A model generated the notes under the pieces. It was not told where the DNA came from. It made no database searches and worked only from the letters and a program-made list of their open reading frames with translations. From Mesorhizobium sp. AR10 (GTDB taxonomy: Bacteria > Pseudomonadota > Alphaproteobacteria > Rhizobiales > Rhizobiaceae), in the NCBI RefSeq assembly GCF_024746795.1, contig NZ_CP080524.1, positions 2,148,001 to 2,212,000 of the forward strand: a stretch of DNA of 64,000 nucleotides. The letters run 5' to 3'. Shown here piece by piece: positions 16,643 through 22,813 of the stretch. How positions within the stretch are numbered: the stretch's first letter is position 1; each line of letters starts with the position of its first letter. The translations under genes and the position numbers were made by a program.

Positions 16643-17419
16643 ATGTCAGTTGAAAGAACCACAGCCGCGGGCGGCATGGAAACCTCCTATGGTTTCAAGC
16701 ATGTAGGGGCAGGCGACAAGCAGTCCCTGGTCAACGACGTTTTCCACAAGGTGGCGAACCGCTACGATCTGATGAATGATCTGATGTCGGCTGGCCTGCA
16801 TCGGCTCTGGAAGGACGCCATGGTCACATGGCTCAATCCGCCGAAGCGACCGGGCTGGAAGGTTCTCGACGTTGCCGGCGGCACCGGCGACGTGGCCTTC
16901 CGCATCGTCGAGAAGAGCCATGGCAATGCCCATGCCACCGTTCTCGACATCAACGGCTCGATGCTCGCCGTTGGCCGCGACCGGGCCGAGAAAAAAGGCC
17001 TGTCGGCAAACACCGATTTCGTCGAGGCCAATGCCGAGGAGCTGCCATTCGCAGATGCCACGTTCGACGCCTACACCATCGCTTTCGGCATTCGCAACGT
17101 GCCGCGCATCGATGTGGCGCTCTCAGAAGCCTATCGCGTGCTGAAACCCGGCGGGCGGTTCCTCTGCCTTGAGTTTTCCGAGGTCGACATGCCGTTGCTC
17201 GACAAGCTCTATGAAGCATGGTCGTTCAACGCCATCCCCAGGATCGGCAAGGCGGTCACCGGCGACGGCGAGCCCTATTCCTATCTGGTCGAATCGATCC
17301 GCAAATTTCCCAACCAGGTGAATTTTGCTTCCATGATCACCCGCGCGGGCTTCGATCGCGCCTCTTTCCGCAACTATTCGGCCGGCATCGCCGCTCTTCA
17401 TTCGGGCTGGAAGCTTTGA
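16643..17419 (+). CDS. ubiE: Ubiquinone/menaquinone C-methyltransferase UbiE
   Basis: A 258-residue SAM-dependent methyltransferase that C-methylates the benzoquinol ring during ubiquinone synthesis. It has the SAM motif [13 protein letters not shown] at about residues 74-86, the UbiE signature [18 protein letters not shown], and the second signature AFGIRNVPR. Its divergent start lies 147 bases from add. The next gene is ubiB, an arrangement common in alphaproteobacteria. Confidence 0.95.
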
Positions 17420-17489
17420 GGCTGGCCCATATTTTTCATACTCGATGTGCCCAGCGCCGGTCTCGGAAATCGGCGGAGCAAGTGCGGCC

Positions 17490-19064
17490 ATGAGCAATTT
17501 CGGCGCTGCTTTTCGGCTCGCACGGGCCGGCTGGGTGCTGGTCCGCGAGGGCGTCATCGCCGCCTTGCCGGGCGACGAACTTTCCGGCCTGCCGAAATTC
17601 GGCTGGCGCGTGGCCCGGATGTTCACCCGCCGCCGCGCGCTTGCCTATGAGCGTGGCGACCGGCTGGCCAAGGCGGTTGTCCGGCTCGGCCCGTCCTACG
17701 TCAAGCTCGGCCAGTTCCTGGCGACGCGGCCCGATGTCGTCGGCAACGACATGGCGCTCGACCTCGCCATGCTGCAAGACAAGATGCATACGTTTCCGCA
17801 GGCCGAGGCCGTGGCTGCGATCGAAGCCTCGCTCGGGCGCAAGGTCGGCGAGCTCTACGTCGGGTTCGGTGATGCCGTCGCCGCCGCCTCGATCGCCCAG
17901 GTCCACACCGCCGAAACCCTGCAGAACGGTGTCGCCACCCGGGTGGCGGTGAAGGTCATCCGGCCGGGTGTGCGTCGCCGCTTCTTCCACGATCTCGAAA
18001 GCTATTTCCTCGCCGCCCGCCTGCAGGAGAAGTACATCCCGTCGTCGCGCCGCCTGCGGCCGGTCGAGGTGACCGAGACGCTCGCCCAGACCACCAAGAT
18101 CGAGATGGATTTGCGGCTCGAAGCAGCAGCGCTTTCCGAACTCGGCGAGAACACCAAGGACGATCTCGGCTTTCGGGTGCCGTCGGTCGACTGGGAGCGT
18201 ACCGGCCGCGACGTGCTGACCATGGAGTGGGTCGACGGCGTCAAGATGAACGACATTGCCGGACTTGCAGCCGCCGGCCACGATCTCAAGGCGATCGCCG
18301 CCAACCTCATCCAGTCGTTTCTGCGCCACACGCTGCGCGACGGCTTCTTCCATGCCGACATGCATCCGGGAAACCTGTTCGTCGAGGCCGACGGCACCAT
18401 CGTCGCCGTCGATCTCGGCATTGCCGGCCGGCTCGGCAAGAAGGAGCGCCGGTTCCTCGCCGAGATTCTCTACGGCTTCATCACCCGCGACTATCTGCGC
18501 GTCGCCGAAGTGCATTTCGAGGCCGGCTATGTGCCGCGCCAGCACAATGTCGCGGCGTTTGCGCAGGCGATCCGCGCCATCGGCGAGCCCATCCATGGCC
18601 AGCCGGCCGAGACCATCTCGATGGCCAAGCTGCTGACGCTTCTGTTCGAGGTCACGGAACTCTTCGACATGGCGACGCGGCCGGAATTGATCCTGCTGCA
18701 GAAGACCATGGTCGTGGTCGAAGGCGTCGCCCGCACGCTCGACCCGGCCTTCAACATGTGGAAGACGGCCGAGCCGGTGGTCGGCGACTGGATCGCCGGC
18801 AATCTCGGCCCGCGCGGCCTGCTGGTCGATGTGCGCGACGGCGCCAAGGCGATGCTGGCGCTGGTTCGCCAGGCGCCGGAGCTTGCCGCCCGTACCGAGC
18901 GGCTGTCGCGCGAGATCGACCTGATGGCCGAGCACGGGCTGCGCTTCGACGAGACAACCGCACGTGCGATCGGCAAGGCCGAGGCGCGCTACACCCGCTC
19001 GGGACGGCTGGCGCTGTGGGTGATCGCGCTGACGCTGCTCTATATCGCCTGGCGAATTTTCTGA
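17490..19064 (+). CDS. ubiB: Ubiquinone biosynthesis regulatory kinase-like protein UbiB
   Basis: A 524-residue ABC1/ADCK/UbiB atypical kinase. It shows the KxGQ motif (YVKLGQFLATRPD), an A-rich nucleotide loop (AAASIAQVHTA), HADMHPGNLFV and the metal-binding VDLGIAGRLG, with C-terminal membrane-spanning sequence (LALWVIALTLLYIAW). UbiB supports aerobic ubiquinone synthesis and lipid handling at the inner membrane. The ATG at 17490 gives the usual N-terminus MSNFGAAFRLARAG; an upstream in-frame ATG at 17445 is possible but adds atypical residues. Confidence 0.92.
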   Translation: MSNFGAAFRLARAGWVLVREGVIAALPGDELSGLPKFGWRVARMFTRRRALAYERGDRLAKAVVRLGPSYVKLGQFLATRPDVVGNDMALDLAMLQDKMHTFPQAEAVAAIEASLGRKVGELYVGFGDAVAAASIAQVHTAETLQNGVATRVAVKVIRPGVRRRFFHDLESYFLAARLQEKYIPSSRRLRPVEVTETLAQTTKIEMDLRLEAAALSELGENTKDDLGFRVPSVDWERTGRDVLTMEWVDGVKMNDIAGLAAAGHDLKAIAANLIQSFLRHTLRDGFFHADMHPGNLFVEADGTIVAVDLGIAGRLGKKERRFLAEILYGFITRDYLRVAEVHFEAGYVPRQHNVAAFAQAIRAIGEPIHGQPAETISMAKLLTLLFEVTELFDMATRPELILLQKTMVVVEGVARTLDPAFNMWKTAEPVVGDWIAGNLGPRGLLVDVRDGAKAMLALVRQAPELAARTERLSREIDLMAEHGLRFDETTARAIGKAEARYTRSGRLALWVIALTLLYIAWRIF

Positions 19065-19079
19065 TTTCTTGCCTTGAAT

Positions 19080-19130
19080 TGATTGCATTGCTATCATTGC
19101 ACTCGGCAATGTCGGACGAAGTGCAATCAT
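19080..19130 (+). promoter_or_regulatory. Repeated TGCWATCA-type sites before coaBC, candidate RHH operator
   Basis: TGATTGCA (19080-19087) is the exact inverted repeat of TGCAATCA (19122-19129), which ends one base before the ATG. Between them TGCTATCA (19089-19096) differs from TGCAATCA by one base, and ATCATTGCAC (19093-19102) inverts against GTGCAATCAT (19121-19130) in 9 of 10 positions. Such clustered half-sites suit a ribbon-helix-helix protein, and the downstream gene encodes one. Confidence 0.5.
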
Positions 19131-20603
19131 ATGGCAAGCATCACCATTCGCAATCTCGATGACGAGGTCAAGGATCTGCTGCGCCAACTGGCGGCAGAGA
19201 ACGACCGCTCGATGGAAGAGCAGGCGAGGGTGATGATCCGCGCCGCGGTCGAAGGCCAGCTTGGCCCGGTTGGCCGCATCGACCAGATCGAGAAAACGCT
19301 GCGCGAACTGTCGAGCTCACGCGATCCGGCGATGCAAATTGCCCCCGTATCGAGCAAGGTCTCGCCGCACGGCACACTCTCCGGCAAGCGCATCCTGCTG
19401 ATCATCGGCGGTGGTATCGCCGCCTACAAGGCGTTGGACCTGATCCGCCGGCTGCGCGAGCGGGGCGCTGCGGTGCGGGTGGTGATGACCGCTGCTGCGC
19501 AGGAATTCGTCACCACGCTGTCGGTCGGTGCGCTTTCCGCTGACCATGTCTTCACCGAATTGTTCGACCGCAATGACGAGCACGATGTCGGTCACATCCG
19601 CCTATCGCGCGAGGCCGACCTGCTGGTGGTGGCGCCGGCGACTGCCGACCTGATGGCGAAGCTTGCCAACGGCCATGCCAATGACCTGGCCTCCACCGTG
19701 CTCATCGCCACCGACAAGCCGGTTTTGATGGCGCCGGCGATGAACCCCAGAATGTGGGCTCATCCGGCGACCCGGCGCAACCGCGCGACGCTGGCCAAGG
19801 ACGGCATCGCATTCATCGGCCCAGCCAAGGGCGAAATGGCCGAGAGCAACGAGGTGGGCGATGGCCGGATGGCCGAGCCGCTGGAGATCACGGCGGCAAT
19901 CGAGGCACTGTTCGATACCAAGCCGAAGCCCCTTTCGGGCAGGAGGATCATCGTCACCTCGGGGCCGACACATGAGCCGATCGACCCGGTGCGCTACATC
20001 GCCAACCGTTCATCCGGCAAGCAGGGCCATGCCATCGCGGCGGCACTGGCAAGGCTTGGCGCCGATGTGCGCCTTGTCTCCGGCCCGGTCAATATTGCCG
20101 ATCCGGCCGGTGTGACCACACTGCATGTCGAAACCGCGGCCGAGATGAAGGAGGCAGTCGAACGATTGCTGCCAGCGGATGCCGGGGTGTTCGTCGCGGC
20201 TGTCGCCGACTGGCGCACCGCCAATTCCGCCGGCGAGAAGATCAAGAAGGTGGCGGGCGAGGGGCCGCCGGCGCTGCAGATGGTCGAGAATCCCGACATT
20301 CTCGCCGGCGTCGGTCATCACAGGATGCGGCCCGGCCTGGTCGTCGGCTTCGCTGCCGAGACGCAGGACCTTGTCGGCAACGCCGAAGCCAAGCTCAGGA
20401 AGAAGGGCGCCGACTTCATCGTCGCCAACGATGTGTCGCATGACAGCGGCGTCGGGTCGTCGGGCGTGATGGGCGGCGACCGCAACCGGGTGCGGATCGT
20501 GTCGAAGACCGGCGTCGGGGAATGGCCGGAGATGAGCAAGGACGAGGTGGCGGCGCGCCTTGCCGCCTTGATCGCCGAGCGCCTCAAGACTGTGGTGGTC
20601 TGA
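19131..20603 (+). CDS. coaBC: RHH-domain/CoaBC fusion: phosphopantothenoylcysteine synthetase/decarboxylase
   Basis: This 490-residue bifunctional enzyme makes phosphopantothenoylcysteine and decarboxylates it to 4'-phosphopantetheine for coenzyme A. Residues about 84-265 are the flavin-dependent CoaC half (GGGIAAYKALDLIRRL, active-site HIRLSREAD and PAMNPRMW). The C-terminal half is CoaB (TSGPTHEPIDPVRYI, SSGKQG). Unusually, residues 1-42 are a FitA-like ribbon-helix-helix antitoxin domain (MASITIRNLDDEVKDLLRQL) joined by a linker of about 40 residues. The frame is continuous, and no ribosome site or start suggests CoaBC begins separately near residue 84. Ordinary CoaBC is about 400 residues, so the extension is extra. 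The gene could bind its own promoter through the repeats at 19080-19130. Confidence 0.9.
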   Translation: MASITIRNLDDEVKDLLRQLAAENDRSMEEQARVMIRAAVEGQLGPVGRIDQIEKTLRELSSSRDPAMQIAPVSSKVSPHGTLSGKRILLIIGGGIAAYKALDLIRRLRERGAAVRVVMTAAAQEFVTTLSVGALSADHVFTELFDRNDEHDVGHIRLSREADLLVVAPATADLMAKLANGHANDLASTVLIATDKPVLMAPAMNPRMWAHPATRRNRATLAKDGIAFIGPAKGEMAESNEVGDGRMAEPLEITAAIEALFDTKPKPLSGRRIIVTSGPTHEPIDPVRYIANRSSGKQGHAIAAALARLGADVRLVSGPVNIADPAGVTTLHVETAAEMKEAVERLLPADAGVFVAAVADWRTANSAGEKIKKVAGEGPPALQMVENPDILAGVGHHRMRPGLVVGFAAETQDLVGNAEAKLRKKGADFIVANDVSHDSGVGSSGVMGGDRNRVRIVSKTGVGEWPEMSKDEVAARLAALIAERLKTVVV

Positions 20604-20622
20604 CTTTTAAGCCTTTGTTTTT

Positions 20623-20670
20623 ATGCATGTCGTTATCCCAAAACCGCTACCCACTTTTGGGCGACATGCA
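20623..20670. repeat. Intergenic palindrome, long hairpin between convergent genes
   Basis: Outer arms TGCATGTCG (20624-20632) and CGACATGCA (20662-20670) enclose CCCAAAA (20637-20643) pairing with TTTTGGG (20655-20661). It fills most of the gap between coaBC and the MFS gene and may end transcription from both sides. Related copies are at 5753, about 25052 and 46101. Confidence 0.75.
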
Positions 20671-20672
20671 CA

Positions 20673-22109
20673 CTAGCCTGTCGCTTCCTGCGGCCGGGCA
20701 GCCGGTGCTGATATCCTCAAGGCCGCGAGGCACCCGACAAGGGCGAGCGGCACGAAGGCGAGGAACAGCCAGGTAGCGACGTTGGCCGCCGCCTCGCGAT
20801 TCAGGCCTTCGGAAAAGCCGCTGGCATTGGCAACGATGCCGGTCAGTGCTGCACCCACTGCATAGCCGATGCGCTGCATCGTCGGCACGGCAGCCGACGC
20901 GATGGTCTGCTCGCCGGTCCTCGCCGATGCGACGATGGCGCGCGTGACGAAGGGCCAGGCGATTCCGAAGCCGCCACCCTGCAGCAGCGCGCACAACAGG
21001 ATCAGCGGAATTGAACCCATGGGCACCGTGTAGGCAAAGCCGGCGATGCCAGTCGCGATCATCACCGCGCCACCGACAATGATCAGCCGCTCGCGCTGCG
21101 GCGGTGCGTTGGCGACGAGAATGGACAGGGTCGACCAGGCGATCGCTTCAGCGGCGATGATGTAGCCGGTGGTCAGGATCGGAATGTCGTGCAGGCTGGT
21201 CAGGATCAGCGGTCCGTAGACTCCAAAGGAGCAGGTCGCCACTGAAAGGGCGGCAACCAAGGTCATGCCGGCACCGACCGGCGAGCGCCATGAGAACAGC
21301 TGCGACGGAAACAGCCGCGAGCGCGGCTTCAGGGCGTCGATGTAGACGAACAGCGCAAGGCCGATCAGGCCGAGAGTCAGCAGCAGGGACGAGCGCAGCA
21401 AGGCAATGTCGACGCCCGCCGTGGCGATCAGCAGCACGCTGACGGCGAGACAGCCGAGCGCGGCAAAGGGGAAGAGTGGTGCAGTGCCGATGATTGCCTG
21501 CGGCCTGGTCGCCTCTGATGTGTCGAGCACGATGAAGCTCGCCAGCGCCATGGCTGTGCCGCCCAGCGTGAAGATGCCGAAGGCCCAGCGCCAGGACAGC
21601 AATTCGGTCATGATCGCGCCGAGCAGCGGTCCGCTGAAGGCGGCAACACCCCAGATCGCCGACATGACGCCGAAAAGCTGTGGCCAGATGGCGCGAGGGA
21701 ACAGCCGCTCGACCGAGACGAAAGCCAACGACACCAGCGCGCCGCCGCCGAACCCTTCGATCAGGCGGCCGGTGAGAAACAGGGGCATGGATGGTGCCGT
21801 GGCGCAGATCAGCGCACCGGTCGCGTAGAGCAGGGCTGCGACGACCATGTTGGTGCGCAGCGCGACATAGCTCACCAGTCGACCGGCCGCGGCGCCGGCG
21901 ACGATGGCGCCAAGCTCGTAGATCGCCAGCGACCAACCGACCAGTTGCACGCCGGCGAGGTCGCCAACCATGGCCGGCATGACCGTCGCCACCATCGTTT
22001 CGTTGGTGGCGTGAAGCAGGATGCCGAGGCTGATGAAGCAGAAGCGCGCCAGGTCGCCGCTCGCCCACAATGCGCGCCAGTCGACCCTGTTTGTGCTGAT
22101 CTCTGTCAT
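20673..22109 (-). CDS. MFS transporter, multidrug-type (14-TM-like)
   Basis: A 478-residue hydrophobic protein of the DHA major facilitator type. Motifs include ATVMPAMVGDL in the first helix region, GRLIEGFGGGALVSLAFVSVERLFP (motif B-like with its conserved Arg) and GPLLGAIMTELLSWRWAFGI (antiporter motif C-like). The ATG at 22109 is preceded by GGGGGACAGG; an upstream in-frame start adds non-conserved residues. The substrate cannot be read from sequence. Its promoter (22197-22227) has MerR-family architecture, suggesting induction by a drug, oxidant or metal. Confidence 0.85.
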   Translation of the reverse strand: MTEISTNRVDWRALWASGDLARFCFISLGILLHATNETMVATVMPAMVGDLAGVQLVGWSLAIYELGAIVAGAAAGRLVSYVALRTNMVVAALLYATGALICATAPSMPLFLTGRLIEGFGGGALVSLAFVSVERLFPRAIWPQLFGVMSAIWGVAAFSGPLLGAIMTELLSWRWAFGIFTLGGTAMALASFIVLDTSEATRPQAIIGTAPLFPFAALGCLAVSVLLIATAGVDIALLRSSLLLTLGLIGLALFVYIDALKPRSRLFPSQLFSWRSPVGAGMTLVAALSVATCSFGVYGPLILTSLHDIPILTTGYIIAAEAIAWSTLSILVANAPPQRERLIIVGGAVMIATGIAGFAYTVPMGSIPLILLCALLQGGGFGIAWPFVTRAIVASARTGEQTIASAAVPTMQRIGYAVGAALTGIVANASGFSEGLNREAAANVATWLFLAFVPLALVGCLAALRISAPAARPQEATG

Positions 22110-22147
22110 CCTGTCCCCCGACTTCTCATGTGCCGATTCCAAGTTTT

Positions 22148-22185
22148 GGAGCGCTCATTGCGTCCAAATGGACACATGGCGCTCC
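22148..22185. repeat. Palindromic repeat in the MFS leader
   Basis: Outer GGAGCGC / GCGCTCC arms enclose CGTCC-AAAT-GGAC. It resembles the GCGTCC palindrome at 24517-24562 and lies within the probable 5' leader of the MFS transcript. Confidence 0.5.
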
Positions 22186-22196
22186 ATCGGGATTGG

Positions 22197-22227
22197 CTTG
22201 TAAAACCTCAACCGCGGTTGAGCTCAA
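22197..22227 (-). promoter_or_regulatory. MerR/SoxR-type promoter with palindromic 19-bp spacer
   Basis: Read leftward: a -35 TTGAGC (22227-22222), a 19-base spacer, and a -10 TACAAG (22202-22197). The spacer region contains the perfect 16-bp palindrome CTCAACCGCGGTTGAG (22207-22222). An overlong 19-bp spacer with a central dyad is the hallmark of promoters activated by MerR-family proteins. The site lies about 90 bases before the MFS start. No MerR gene is in the window. Confidence 0.65.
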
Positions 22228-22255
22228 GCGCTTTTTTTTACGGATATGGAGAGGA

Positions 22256-22738
22256 TCAATTCGCCGAGCTGCGCAGCTGGAACTGGCTGACGCCGATGGC
22301 GATGTTGACGCCTGTCTGCGTCTGCAGGCTGAGCGGCTGCAGCGTGAAGGCCTGCGAGGAGCCGCCGACCAGCAGATTGGCGCCGGCGCCGACCGCCGCC
22401 GTCACCTCGGCGCTGGCACCGACATAGTCACCGGCCAGCGCGCCCGGCGCATAGATGTTTTTCAGCGGCGTCAGCACCAGCCACTGCATGACGGTCTGTT
22501 TGGTCGTGCCTATATCGAGGCCGTATTTGTTGACGGCGCCGAAATAGGCTTCCGGCGCAAAGCTCTTGTCGGCTGGGGTGAAGGTGCAGCTCAGATCCTT
22601 GCTTGATCCGAAGATGAAGCCGGTGCCACCGCCGATGGCGCAATCGAGCGTACCGAGTTCGATGCCCTGATCCTGCGCGTGAGCCTGTCCCGCAAAGGCG
22701 GTAGCGATCATGGCGGCGGCGATGATGGTCTTATGCAA
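22256..22738 (-). CDS. DUF992 secreted protein, copy 1
   Basis: A 160-residue protein with a signal peptide (about 1-21, ending GQAHA) and a DUF992 domain: GTLDCAIGGGTGFIFGSSKD, TADKSFAPEAYFG-like central segment, and the closing ANLLVGGSSQAFTLQPLSLQ. Function unknown; probably periplasmic, with one conserved Cys pair (LDC and LSC). The best start is the TTG at 22738, seven bases after GGGGGG. An ATG at 22759 exists but abuts a terminator hairpin and lacks a ribosome site. It is a paralogue of the next gene upstream. Confidence 0.85.
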   Translation of the reverse strand: MHKTIIAAAMIATAFAGQAHAQDQGIELGTLDCAIGGGTGFIFGSSKDLSCTFTPADKSFAPEAYFGAVNKYGLDIGTTKQTVMQWLVLTPLKNIYAPGALAGDYVGASAEVTAAVGAGANLLVGGSSQAFTLQPLSLQTQTGVNIAIGVSQFQLRSSAN

Positions 22739-22750
22739 GGCGATCCCCCC

Positions 22751-22792
22751 AAAAATCATGCGGCGCGGAAACAGTATCCGGTTCCGCGCCGC
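22751..22792 (-). terminator. Terminator or attenuator between the two DUF992 genes
   Basis: An 11-bp stem GCGGCGCGGAA / TTCCGCGCCGC (22760-22770 and 22782-22792), read leftward, is followed by ATGATTTTT. It would end or reduce read-through from copy 2 into copy 1. Confidence 0.7.
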
Positions 22793-22813
22793 GCGTAGAG
22801 AGACCTTAGGTCT

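What the first reader, a model, noticed from the sequence alone, without database searches (positions are those of the whole stretch)
19131..20603. Ribbon-helix-helix antitoxin domain fused to the coenzyme A enzyme CoaBC
The N-terminal 42 residues of this CoaBC are a FitA/VapB-like RHH DNA-binding domain, in frame and joined by a linker of about 40 residues. A biosynthetic enzyme carrying its own DNA-binding domain could sense pathway flux and repress its own gene. I know of no described case.
Basis: partly seen in the sequence, partly recalled or inferred. Interest (0 to 1): 0.75.

Follow-up and report, generated by a model that had tools for sequence, protein, structure and literature searches.

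The report
Coenzyme A enzyme with antitoxin repressor domain
In Mesorhizobium and many related bacteria, an enzyme that makes coenzyme A carries an antitoxin-type DNA-binding domain at its front end and has matching DNA sites at its own promoter, so it very probably turns down its own gene, and some versions arose when a toxin gene was lost and the antitoxin was welded to the enzyme.

Summary
Window 19131-20603 encodes one 490-aa protein: a FitA-like ribbon-helix-helix (RHH) domain (residues 2-40, 53 bits, Pfam cutoff 27), a ~40-residue linker and complete CoaBC (406 bits). It is the genome's only CoaBC. Of 145 genomes of the genus (Mesorhizobium) with a match, 103 are fused, 34 have an intact RHH-antitoxin/PIN-toxin pair between ubiB and coaBC, 8 have neither. 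Sixteen fused proteins (13 of 67 inspected in the genus, 3 of 42 elsewhere) keep the tail of such antitoxins, so fusion by loss of the toxin gene happened more than once. The RHH fusion also occurs in at least 18 other genera of the family and in Bradyrhizobium; two further lineages carry an HTH domain instead. The RHH is as constrained as the enzyme (dN/dS 0.06 and 0.10). In the window's lineage the promoter keeps two near-invariant sites, one over the -35/-10 spacer and -10, one abutting the ATG, with unconserved DNA between; the first occurs once in the genome. Best reading: CoaBC represses its own gene, like the RHH flavoenzyme PutA. DNA binding and effector sensing are untested. My full-text searches found no paper describing it.

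The parts
19131..20603 (+). RHH-CoaBC fusion gene, 490 aa plus stop; only CoaBC of the genome
19131..19256 (+). FitA-like ribbon-helix-helix domain, residues 1-42
   Evidence: Pfam PF22513 53 bits; dN/dS 0.060 on 35 loci; T5, R7, S27, E29, R33 invariant in the 17-row and the 42-row alignments
19257..19379 (+). linker, residues 43-83, fast-evolving, with a predicted helix 49-61
   Evidence: dN/dS 0.403; AlphaFold model, pLDDT under 50 here
19380..20603 (+). CoaBC enzyme part (CoaC flavoprotein residues 86-253, CoaB/DFP 268-456)
19080..19100 (+). operator-like site 1, TGATTGCATTGCTATCATTGC, over the -35/-10 spacer and the -10
   Evidence: 0-1 mismatch in 50 of 52 class A loci with Ser at residue 3; once in own genome with up to 3 mismatches
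19120..19129 (+). operator-like site 2, AGTGCAATCA, one base before the ATG; TGCAATCA is the inverted copy of TGATTGCA
   Evidence: TGCAATCA at -9 to -2: exact in 45, one mismatch in 7, absent in 2 of 54 class A loci
19068..19073 (+). -35-like CTTGCC
   Evidence: CTTGNN 18 bases before TATC[AG]T in 47, 17 bases in 2 of 54 loci; promoter scan finds the overlapping TTGCCT
19092..19097 (+). -10-like TATCAT
   Evidence: TATC[AG]T in 54 of 54 loci
17445..19064 (+). ubiB, upstream neighbour
   Evidence: TIGR01982 549 bits
16643..17419 (+). ubiE
   Evidence: NF001242 440 bits

Best explanation
The protein is an autogenous repressor as well as an enzyme. The RHH domains pair, as in antitoxins, and bind TGATTGCA-type half-sites at the coaBC promoter, one over the -35/-10 spacer and -10 and one at the start codon; the oligomeric CoaBC holds several RHH dimers together and so does the job the PIN toxin does in FitAB-type complexes. 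As CoaBC accumulates it shuts its own promoter. The versions with tail classes B, C and D arose from an antitoxin-toxin pair lying between ubiB and coaBC: the toxin gene was deleted and the antitoxin became the front end of CoaBC. Shown by sequence: domain, fusion, selection, site conservation, the toxin-antitoxin pair in relatives, retained antitoxin tails. Inferred: DNA binding, repression, multivalency, direction from toxin-antitoxin pair to fusion. Not tested: gating by CoA thioesters or FMN. The origin of the window's own version (class A) is unknown and may be old.
For: RHH at least as constrained as the enzyme on the same 35 loci (dN/dS 0.060 and 0.102). Phylogenetic footprint: site 1 has 0-1 mismatch in 50 of 52 loci, site 2 and the -35 CTTG are near invariant, most columns between are 35-60% conserved. 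Site 1 unique in own genome. Serine at RHH residue 3 goes with exact TGATTGCA/TGCAATCA upstream in 85 of 88 loci, against 5 of 38 for threonine and 0 of 11 for arginine; shuffled rate 0.0018. Named genomes: 42 of 49 RHH-fused loci have the half-site within 75 bases, 1 of 31 unfused within 150. Inverted repeats upstream of fused and toxin-antitoxin genes, not of the 8 loci without them. 34 of 34 toxin-antitoxin loci have a full open toxin, 0 of 67 fused loci have a hit to the three toxin types. Thirteen of 13 class B-D tails and 3 of 42 elsewhere (L127, L131, L136) clearly match free antitoxin tails (scores 76-171). HTH versions with inverted repeats just upstream of the start, clear in L164 and L171, weak in L163. 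M. smegmatis and M. tuberculosis CoaBC are dodecamers (passages of PMC7794376); the toxin stabilises FitA on DNA (passages of PMC3920265).
Against: No experiment. Controlled for phylogeny on the CoaBC tree, residue 3 and half-site agree in 6.5 and disagree in 1.0 of 10 pairs, median p 0.07: suggestive only. Class A tails do not clearly resemble any of 45 free antitoxin tails: scores 22-53, 42 of 54 not above 20 of their own shuffles, the other 12 above by 1-16 points, so origin of the window's version from a toxin-antitoxin pair is not shown. 3 of 88 Ser-3 loci and 7 of 49 named fused loci lack the exact half-site. Four free antitoxins with Thr-3 (L017, L019, L064, L079) also have it inside their own palindromes. 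The AlphaFold model is modest (mean pLDDT 65) and says nothing on oligomers.
Confidence: 0.82

Rival explanations
1. The fused domain is kept mainly as an antitoxin: it neutralises PIN toxins of the family (anti-addiction), and DNA binding is a by-product.
For: Tail classes B, C and D keep the C-terminal tail of free antitoxins; fused and toxin-antitoxin states alternate among close species, so protection when alleles are swapped would pay.
Against: Class A, 54 of 67 fused loci inspected in the genus, and 39 of 42 fused loci elsewhere have no clear toxin-binding tail, yet RHH and sites are conserved.
Confidence: 0.1
2. The RHH is a relic or an oligomerisation tag with no DNA role.
For: RHH domains dimerise (recalled); no binding test exists.
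Against: dN/dS 0.060, no higher than the enzyme's 0.102, and near-invariant promoter sites whose half-site is rare upstream of unfused coaBC (1 of 31).
Confidence: 0.04
3. CoaBC is really made from an internal start and the RHH reading frame acts as a separate regulator.
For: In-frame ATG, GTG or TTG codons exist in 51 of 67 fused loci, including ATG at residue 68 here and the old CoaBC Met in L090, L093, L095, L098 and L101.
Against: 16 of 67 loci have no possible start between RHH and CoaC; there is no stop between the two parts.
Confidence: 0.04

Closest known systems
Trifunctional PutA (RHH + proline dehydrogenase/P5C dehydrogenase)
   Same: N-terminal RHH on a flavoenzyme that is an autogenous transcriptional repressor (abstract of PMC5293562)
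   Different: Different enzyme and pathway; PutA switches by proline and membrane association; here the domain is FitA/VapB-type and relatives carry antitoxin-toxin pairs of that kind at the same spot
FitAB / RHH-type VapBC toxin-antitoxin systems
   Same: Same RHH family (PF22513), inverted-repeat sites at own promoter, multivalent complex expected
   Different: No toxin; the partner is a metabolic enzyme in the same chain
CoaBC (Dfp) of other bacteria
   Same: Complete bifunctional enzyme
   Different: CoaBC without this extension begins about residue 82-84 of this protein
BirA and NadR (recalled, not looked up)
   Same: Cofactor-pathway enzymes with a DNA-binding domain
   Different: HTH domains, known effectors; not linked to toxin-antitoxin systems

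Membership tests
FitA-like RHH DNA-binding proteins | Match to PF22513 above its curated cutoff | tested here: met
   53.0 bits, cutoff 27
FitA-like RHH DNA-binding proteins | Sequence-specific binding of promoter DNA | not testable with these tools
   only footprint and residue-site association
Type II toxin-antitoxin system | Antitoxin gene next to a toxin gene | tested here: not met
   0 of 67 fused loci hit any of three PIN toxins within 900 bases upstream of coaBC
CoaBC | Both enzyme domains, above equivalog cutoff | tested here: met
   406 bits, cutoff 219.7
CoaBC | Catalytic activity | not testable with these tools
   sole CoaBC copy in the genome
Autogenous repressor enzyme (PutA-like) | DNA-binding domain in the enzyme chain | tested here: met
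Autogenous repressor enzyme (PutA-like) | Conserved sites in the gene's own promoter | tested here: met
Autogenous repressor enzyme (PutA-like) | Repression in vivo and relief by a ligand | not testable with these tools
   needs experiment
PutA family | Proline dehydrogenase domain | tested here: not met
   no such domain in the Pfam scan

The most novel reading that the evidence does not exclude
CoaBC of the Hyphomicrobiales is a self-repressing enzyme whose DNA-binding domain has been acquired many times, repeatedly by welding the antitoxin of a toxin-antitoxin pair parked in its operon after loss of the toxin; the CoaBC dodecamer took over the toxin's role as the scaffold that makes the repressor bind, and CoA thioesters gate it. 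This would be a general route from a selfish module to a metabolic feedback regulator.
Probability: 0.35. Interest if true: 0.9.

Novelty: new variant of a known kind. Interest (0 to 1): 0.8.

Why it matters
How bacteria tune the middle steps of coenzyme A synthesis at the transcript level is little known (recalled). A single chain that is both enzyme and likely repressor gives a direct, testable loop. It also shows, with both states side by side in one genus, how a toxin-antitoxin pair can become a metabolic regulator by losing its toxin, and that two unrelated DNA-binding folds were joined to the same enzyme.

Tried and rejected
Rfam scan of 17000-22800: no family at gathering threshold, so no known riboswitch. 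Phage and plasmid collections: none of the rows listed (10 of 34 phage records, 30 of 133 plasmid records) matches from before residue 26. Residues 1-75 find antitoxin-like proteins on plasmids, most of the 25 listed of 128 annotated plasmid stabilization protein. Helical phasing of half-site spacings (9, 18, 22-23, 31-33, 40-43, single 52 and 67): random sets of distinct distances reach the score with P 0.009, but the period is not sharp (best about 11.5), so I do not rely on it. AlphaFold of the 490-aa chain: helices 11-23 and 28-40 as in an RHH, mean pLDDT 65; no fold search done. A search of solved structures with the L164 HTH gave a 21-residue resemblance to TAL repeats and two weak regulator hits: not used. 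An assembly artefact was considered and dropped.

Rows dropped before counts: G024 has no match. L025-L030 are outgroups. L163, L164 and L171 are HTH versions and L165, L172-L183, L185 and L186 have no RHH, so they are not in the RHH counts. L143 was missed by my pattern but is. The match tables were cut short by the tool (in one search only small second matches can be missing, all 145 CoaBC rows are shown), and keeps the best 80 of 577; numbers outside the genus are lower bounds. 36 of the 103 fused genus genomes were judged by match coverage only. The first tail control tested 2 of 54 class A tails and shuffled against 40 of 45 antitoxins; one search repeats it on all 109 fused tails against all 45. 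The first selection figures used different loci sets and unaligned codons; I now quote.

Full report
What is there. Window 19131-20603 (+) encodes 490 aa: FitA-like RHH residues 2-40 (53.0 bits, cutoff 27), linker, and complete CoaBC from residue 84 (406 bits, cutoff 219.7). Upstream lie ubiE and ubiB. It is the only CoaBC in the genome.

Distribution in the genus. Of 146 genomes 145 have a match: 103 cover the fused protein from residue 1 or 2, 42 begin at residue 73-82 (counted by me). I held loci for 67 of the 103 fused and for all 42 others. The 42 are 34 with a free RHH gene upstream of coaBC (23 with one, 11 with two) and 8 with none, one of which has a 3-kb insert. All 34 have a full-length open PIN toxin between the RHH gene and coaBC; none of the 67 fused loci has a hit to the three toxin types. 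Pfam calls the two toxins tested PIN (64 and 47 bits) and the three free antitoxins tested FitA-like RHH (54-63 bits). None of these 109 loci has a free RHH, no toxin and an unfused CoaBC. On the CoaBC tree the states are interleaved among close relatives; at least 25 changes between fused and toxin-antitoxin are needed on a quick protein tree that includes other genera. Recombination at the junction may add to this, so it is not a count of fusion events.

How fusions arose. Beyond residue 40 the fused proteins fall into tail classes. Of 67 fused loci, 54 are class A and 13 are classes B, C and D. All 13 match tails of free antitoxins (scores 78-171, own shuffled maxima 33-45), as do 3 of 42 fused loci elsewhere, L127, L131 and L136 (76-92, shuffled 38-43), in several cases to within a few residues of the antitoxin's end. 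Some keep the unfused CoaBC start (MTLSGKR or MTLSDKR) right after it, for example L101, L090 and L095. L097 and L098 hold pieces of two antitoxin tails. L101 also keeps a second free RHH gene upstream. The simplest path is deletion of the toxin gene between antitoxin and coaBC, at least three times (B, C, D). Class A tails score 22-53; 12 of 54 slightly exceed their own 20 shuffles, 42 do not, so their origin stays open. Of the 42 loci elsewhere 38 do not exceed their shuffles and L162 does so by 2 points.

Wider distribution. A model of the fused N-terminus against 394 family genomes, followed by fetching 40 loci, gave 37 RHH fusions (52-78 bits with my genus model); one more (L184) came from a second fetch of 20 loci. 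Together these are 38 genomes in 18 other genera. In a class-level sample of 142 genomes, 140 of them outside the order, 105 had any match and outside the order none ran from the RHH start into CoaC; one, G1043, began at model position 21 but across a stop. Among 80 named loci (best 80 of 577), 49 are RHH-fused: Mesorhizobium, Brucella (cytisi, thiophenivorans and one more), Phyllobacterium, Zhengella, Nitratireductor, Bartonella sp., Notoacmeibacter, Bradyrhizobium, Rhodopseudomonas, Afipia and MAGs without genus name. The 31 others are not, among them the Rhizobium, Agrobacterium, Sinorhizobium and Ensifer entries and three Mesorhizobium.

A second fold. L163 and L164 (one other genus of the family) and L171 (another family) carry a helix-turn-helix in place of the RHH. 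L171 passes the Pfam cutoff (29.4 bits, cutoff 23); L163 and L164 are below it (17.3 and 18.5 bits), with a weak HigA-antitoxin resemblance for L164 (18.6 bits, cutoff 47.7). Inverted repeats end 1 base before the start in L164 and L171 (reached by 0 of 200 shuffles each) and 7 bases before it in L163 (9 of 200, weak).

The sites. In the 52 class A loci with Ser-3 the 21 bases TGATTGCATTGCTATCATTGC are identical in 35 and one off in 15. In the 54 class A loci TATC[AG]T is present in 54, CTTGNN lies 18 bases before it in 47 and 17 bases in 2, and TGCAATCA at -9 to -2 is exact in 45 and one off in 7; 9 have a Shine-Dalgarno-like motif. Most columns between the sites are 35-60% conserved. The own genome has one copy of the 21-mer with up to 3 mismatches and none of the reversed control. 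The generic promoter scan finds the same -10 with an overlapping -35. Over 143 fused and toxin-antitoxin loci, Ser at residue 3 goes with the exact half-site in 85 of 88, Thr in 5 of 38, Arg in 0 of 11; controlled for the tree this is 6.5 for, 1.0 against, 2.5 without difference, median p 0.07. Named fused loci have the half-site in 42 of 49, unfused named ones in 1 of 31. Best inverted-repeat score in 75 upstream bases, mean: class A 8.2, B-D 10.4, toxin-antitoxin 12.0, other genera 8.5, other family 10.5, bare 4.8, base-shuffled 5.2-5.5.

Selection. On the same 35 class A loci (no length change in the N-terminus), codon-aligned: dN/dS RHH 0.060, linker 0.403, CoaBC 0.102. Synonymous distances are high (pS 0.39-0.53), so the ratios are rough; by pN/pS they are 0.095, 0.550 and 0.139.

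Mechanism. By analogy with FitAB, where the toxin stabilises the antitoxin on DNA (passages of PMC3920265) and a hetero-octamer seems required for DNA binding (passages of PMC3384007), a CoaBC oligomer could hold RHH dimers on the two sites. M. smegmatis and M. tuberculosis CoaBC are dodecamers, and CoA thioesters inhibit the M. tuberculosis enzyme (passages of PMC7794376), which makes them natural candidate effectors. This last part is conjecture.

Literature. Full-text searches for CoaBC with ribbon-helix-helix, antitoxin and fused with CoaBC, phosphopantothenoylcysteine with toxin-antitoxin and vapBC with coaBC gave no paper; CoaBC with transcriptional repressor and coenzyme A biosynthesis gave five, of which I saw the listing and the start of the abstracts. 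Searches on PutA with RHH or trigger enzyme and on domesticated antitoxins were read as listings of 20 papers each; none listed names this fusion in its title. The library lacks most subscription papers. A 2009 survey (12 of 30 passages of PMC2701414) suggests that solo antitoxin homologues may regulate other operons; the word pantothenate does not occur in it.

Noticed in passing
L163, L164 (G422, G466) and L171 (G593): CoaBC fused to a helix-turn-helix domain instead of an RHH, with an inverted repeat just before the start codon (clear in L164 and L171, weak in L163).
   Followed up: partly
L016, L018, L020, L021, L056, L057, L060, L062, L071, L075, L076: Eleven toxin-antitoxin loci with an extra RHH gene upstream of the antitoxin gene.
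   Followed up: partly
L089 (G096), between ubiB and coaBC: About 3 kb insert that, read by eye without a search, seems to hold an oppositely oriented regulator and several related small exported proteins in a row.
   Followed up: no
window 19101-19130 and class A loci: Start codon preceded directly by site 2 and mostly without a Shine-Dalgarno-like motif (9 of 54 have one), so the site may also affect translation.
   Followed up: no
L213, L245 (Bartonella sp.): Fused RHH-CoaBC without the exact half-site upstream; GATTTCA-like repeats are seen there instead.
   Followed up: no
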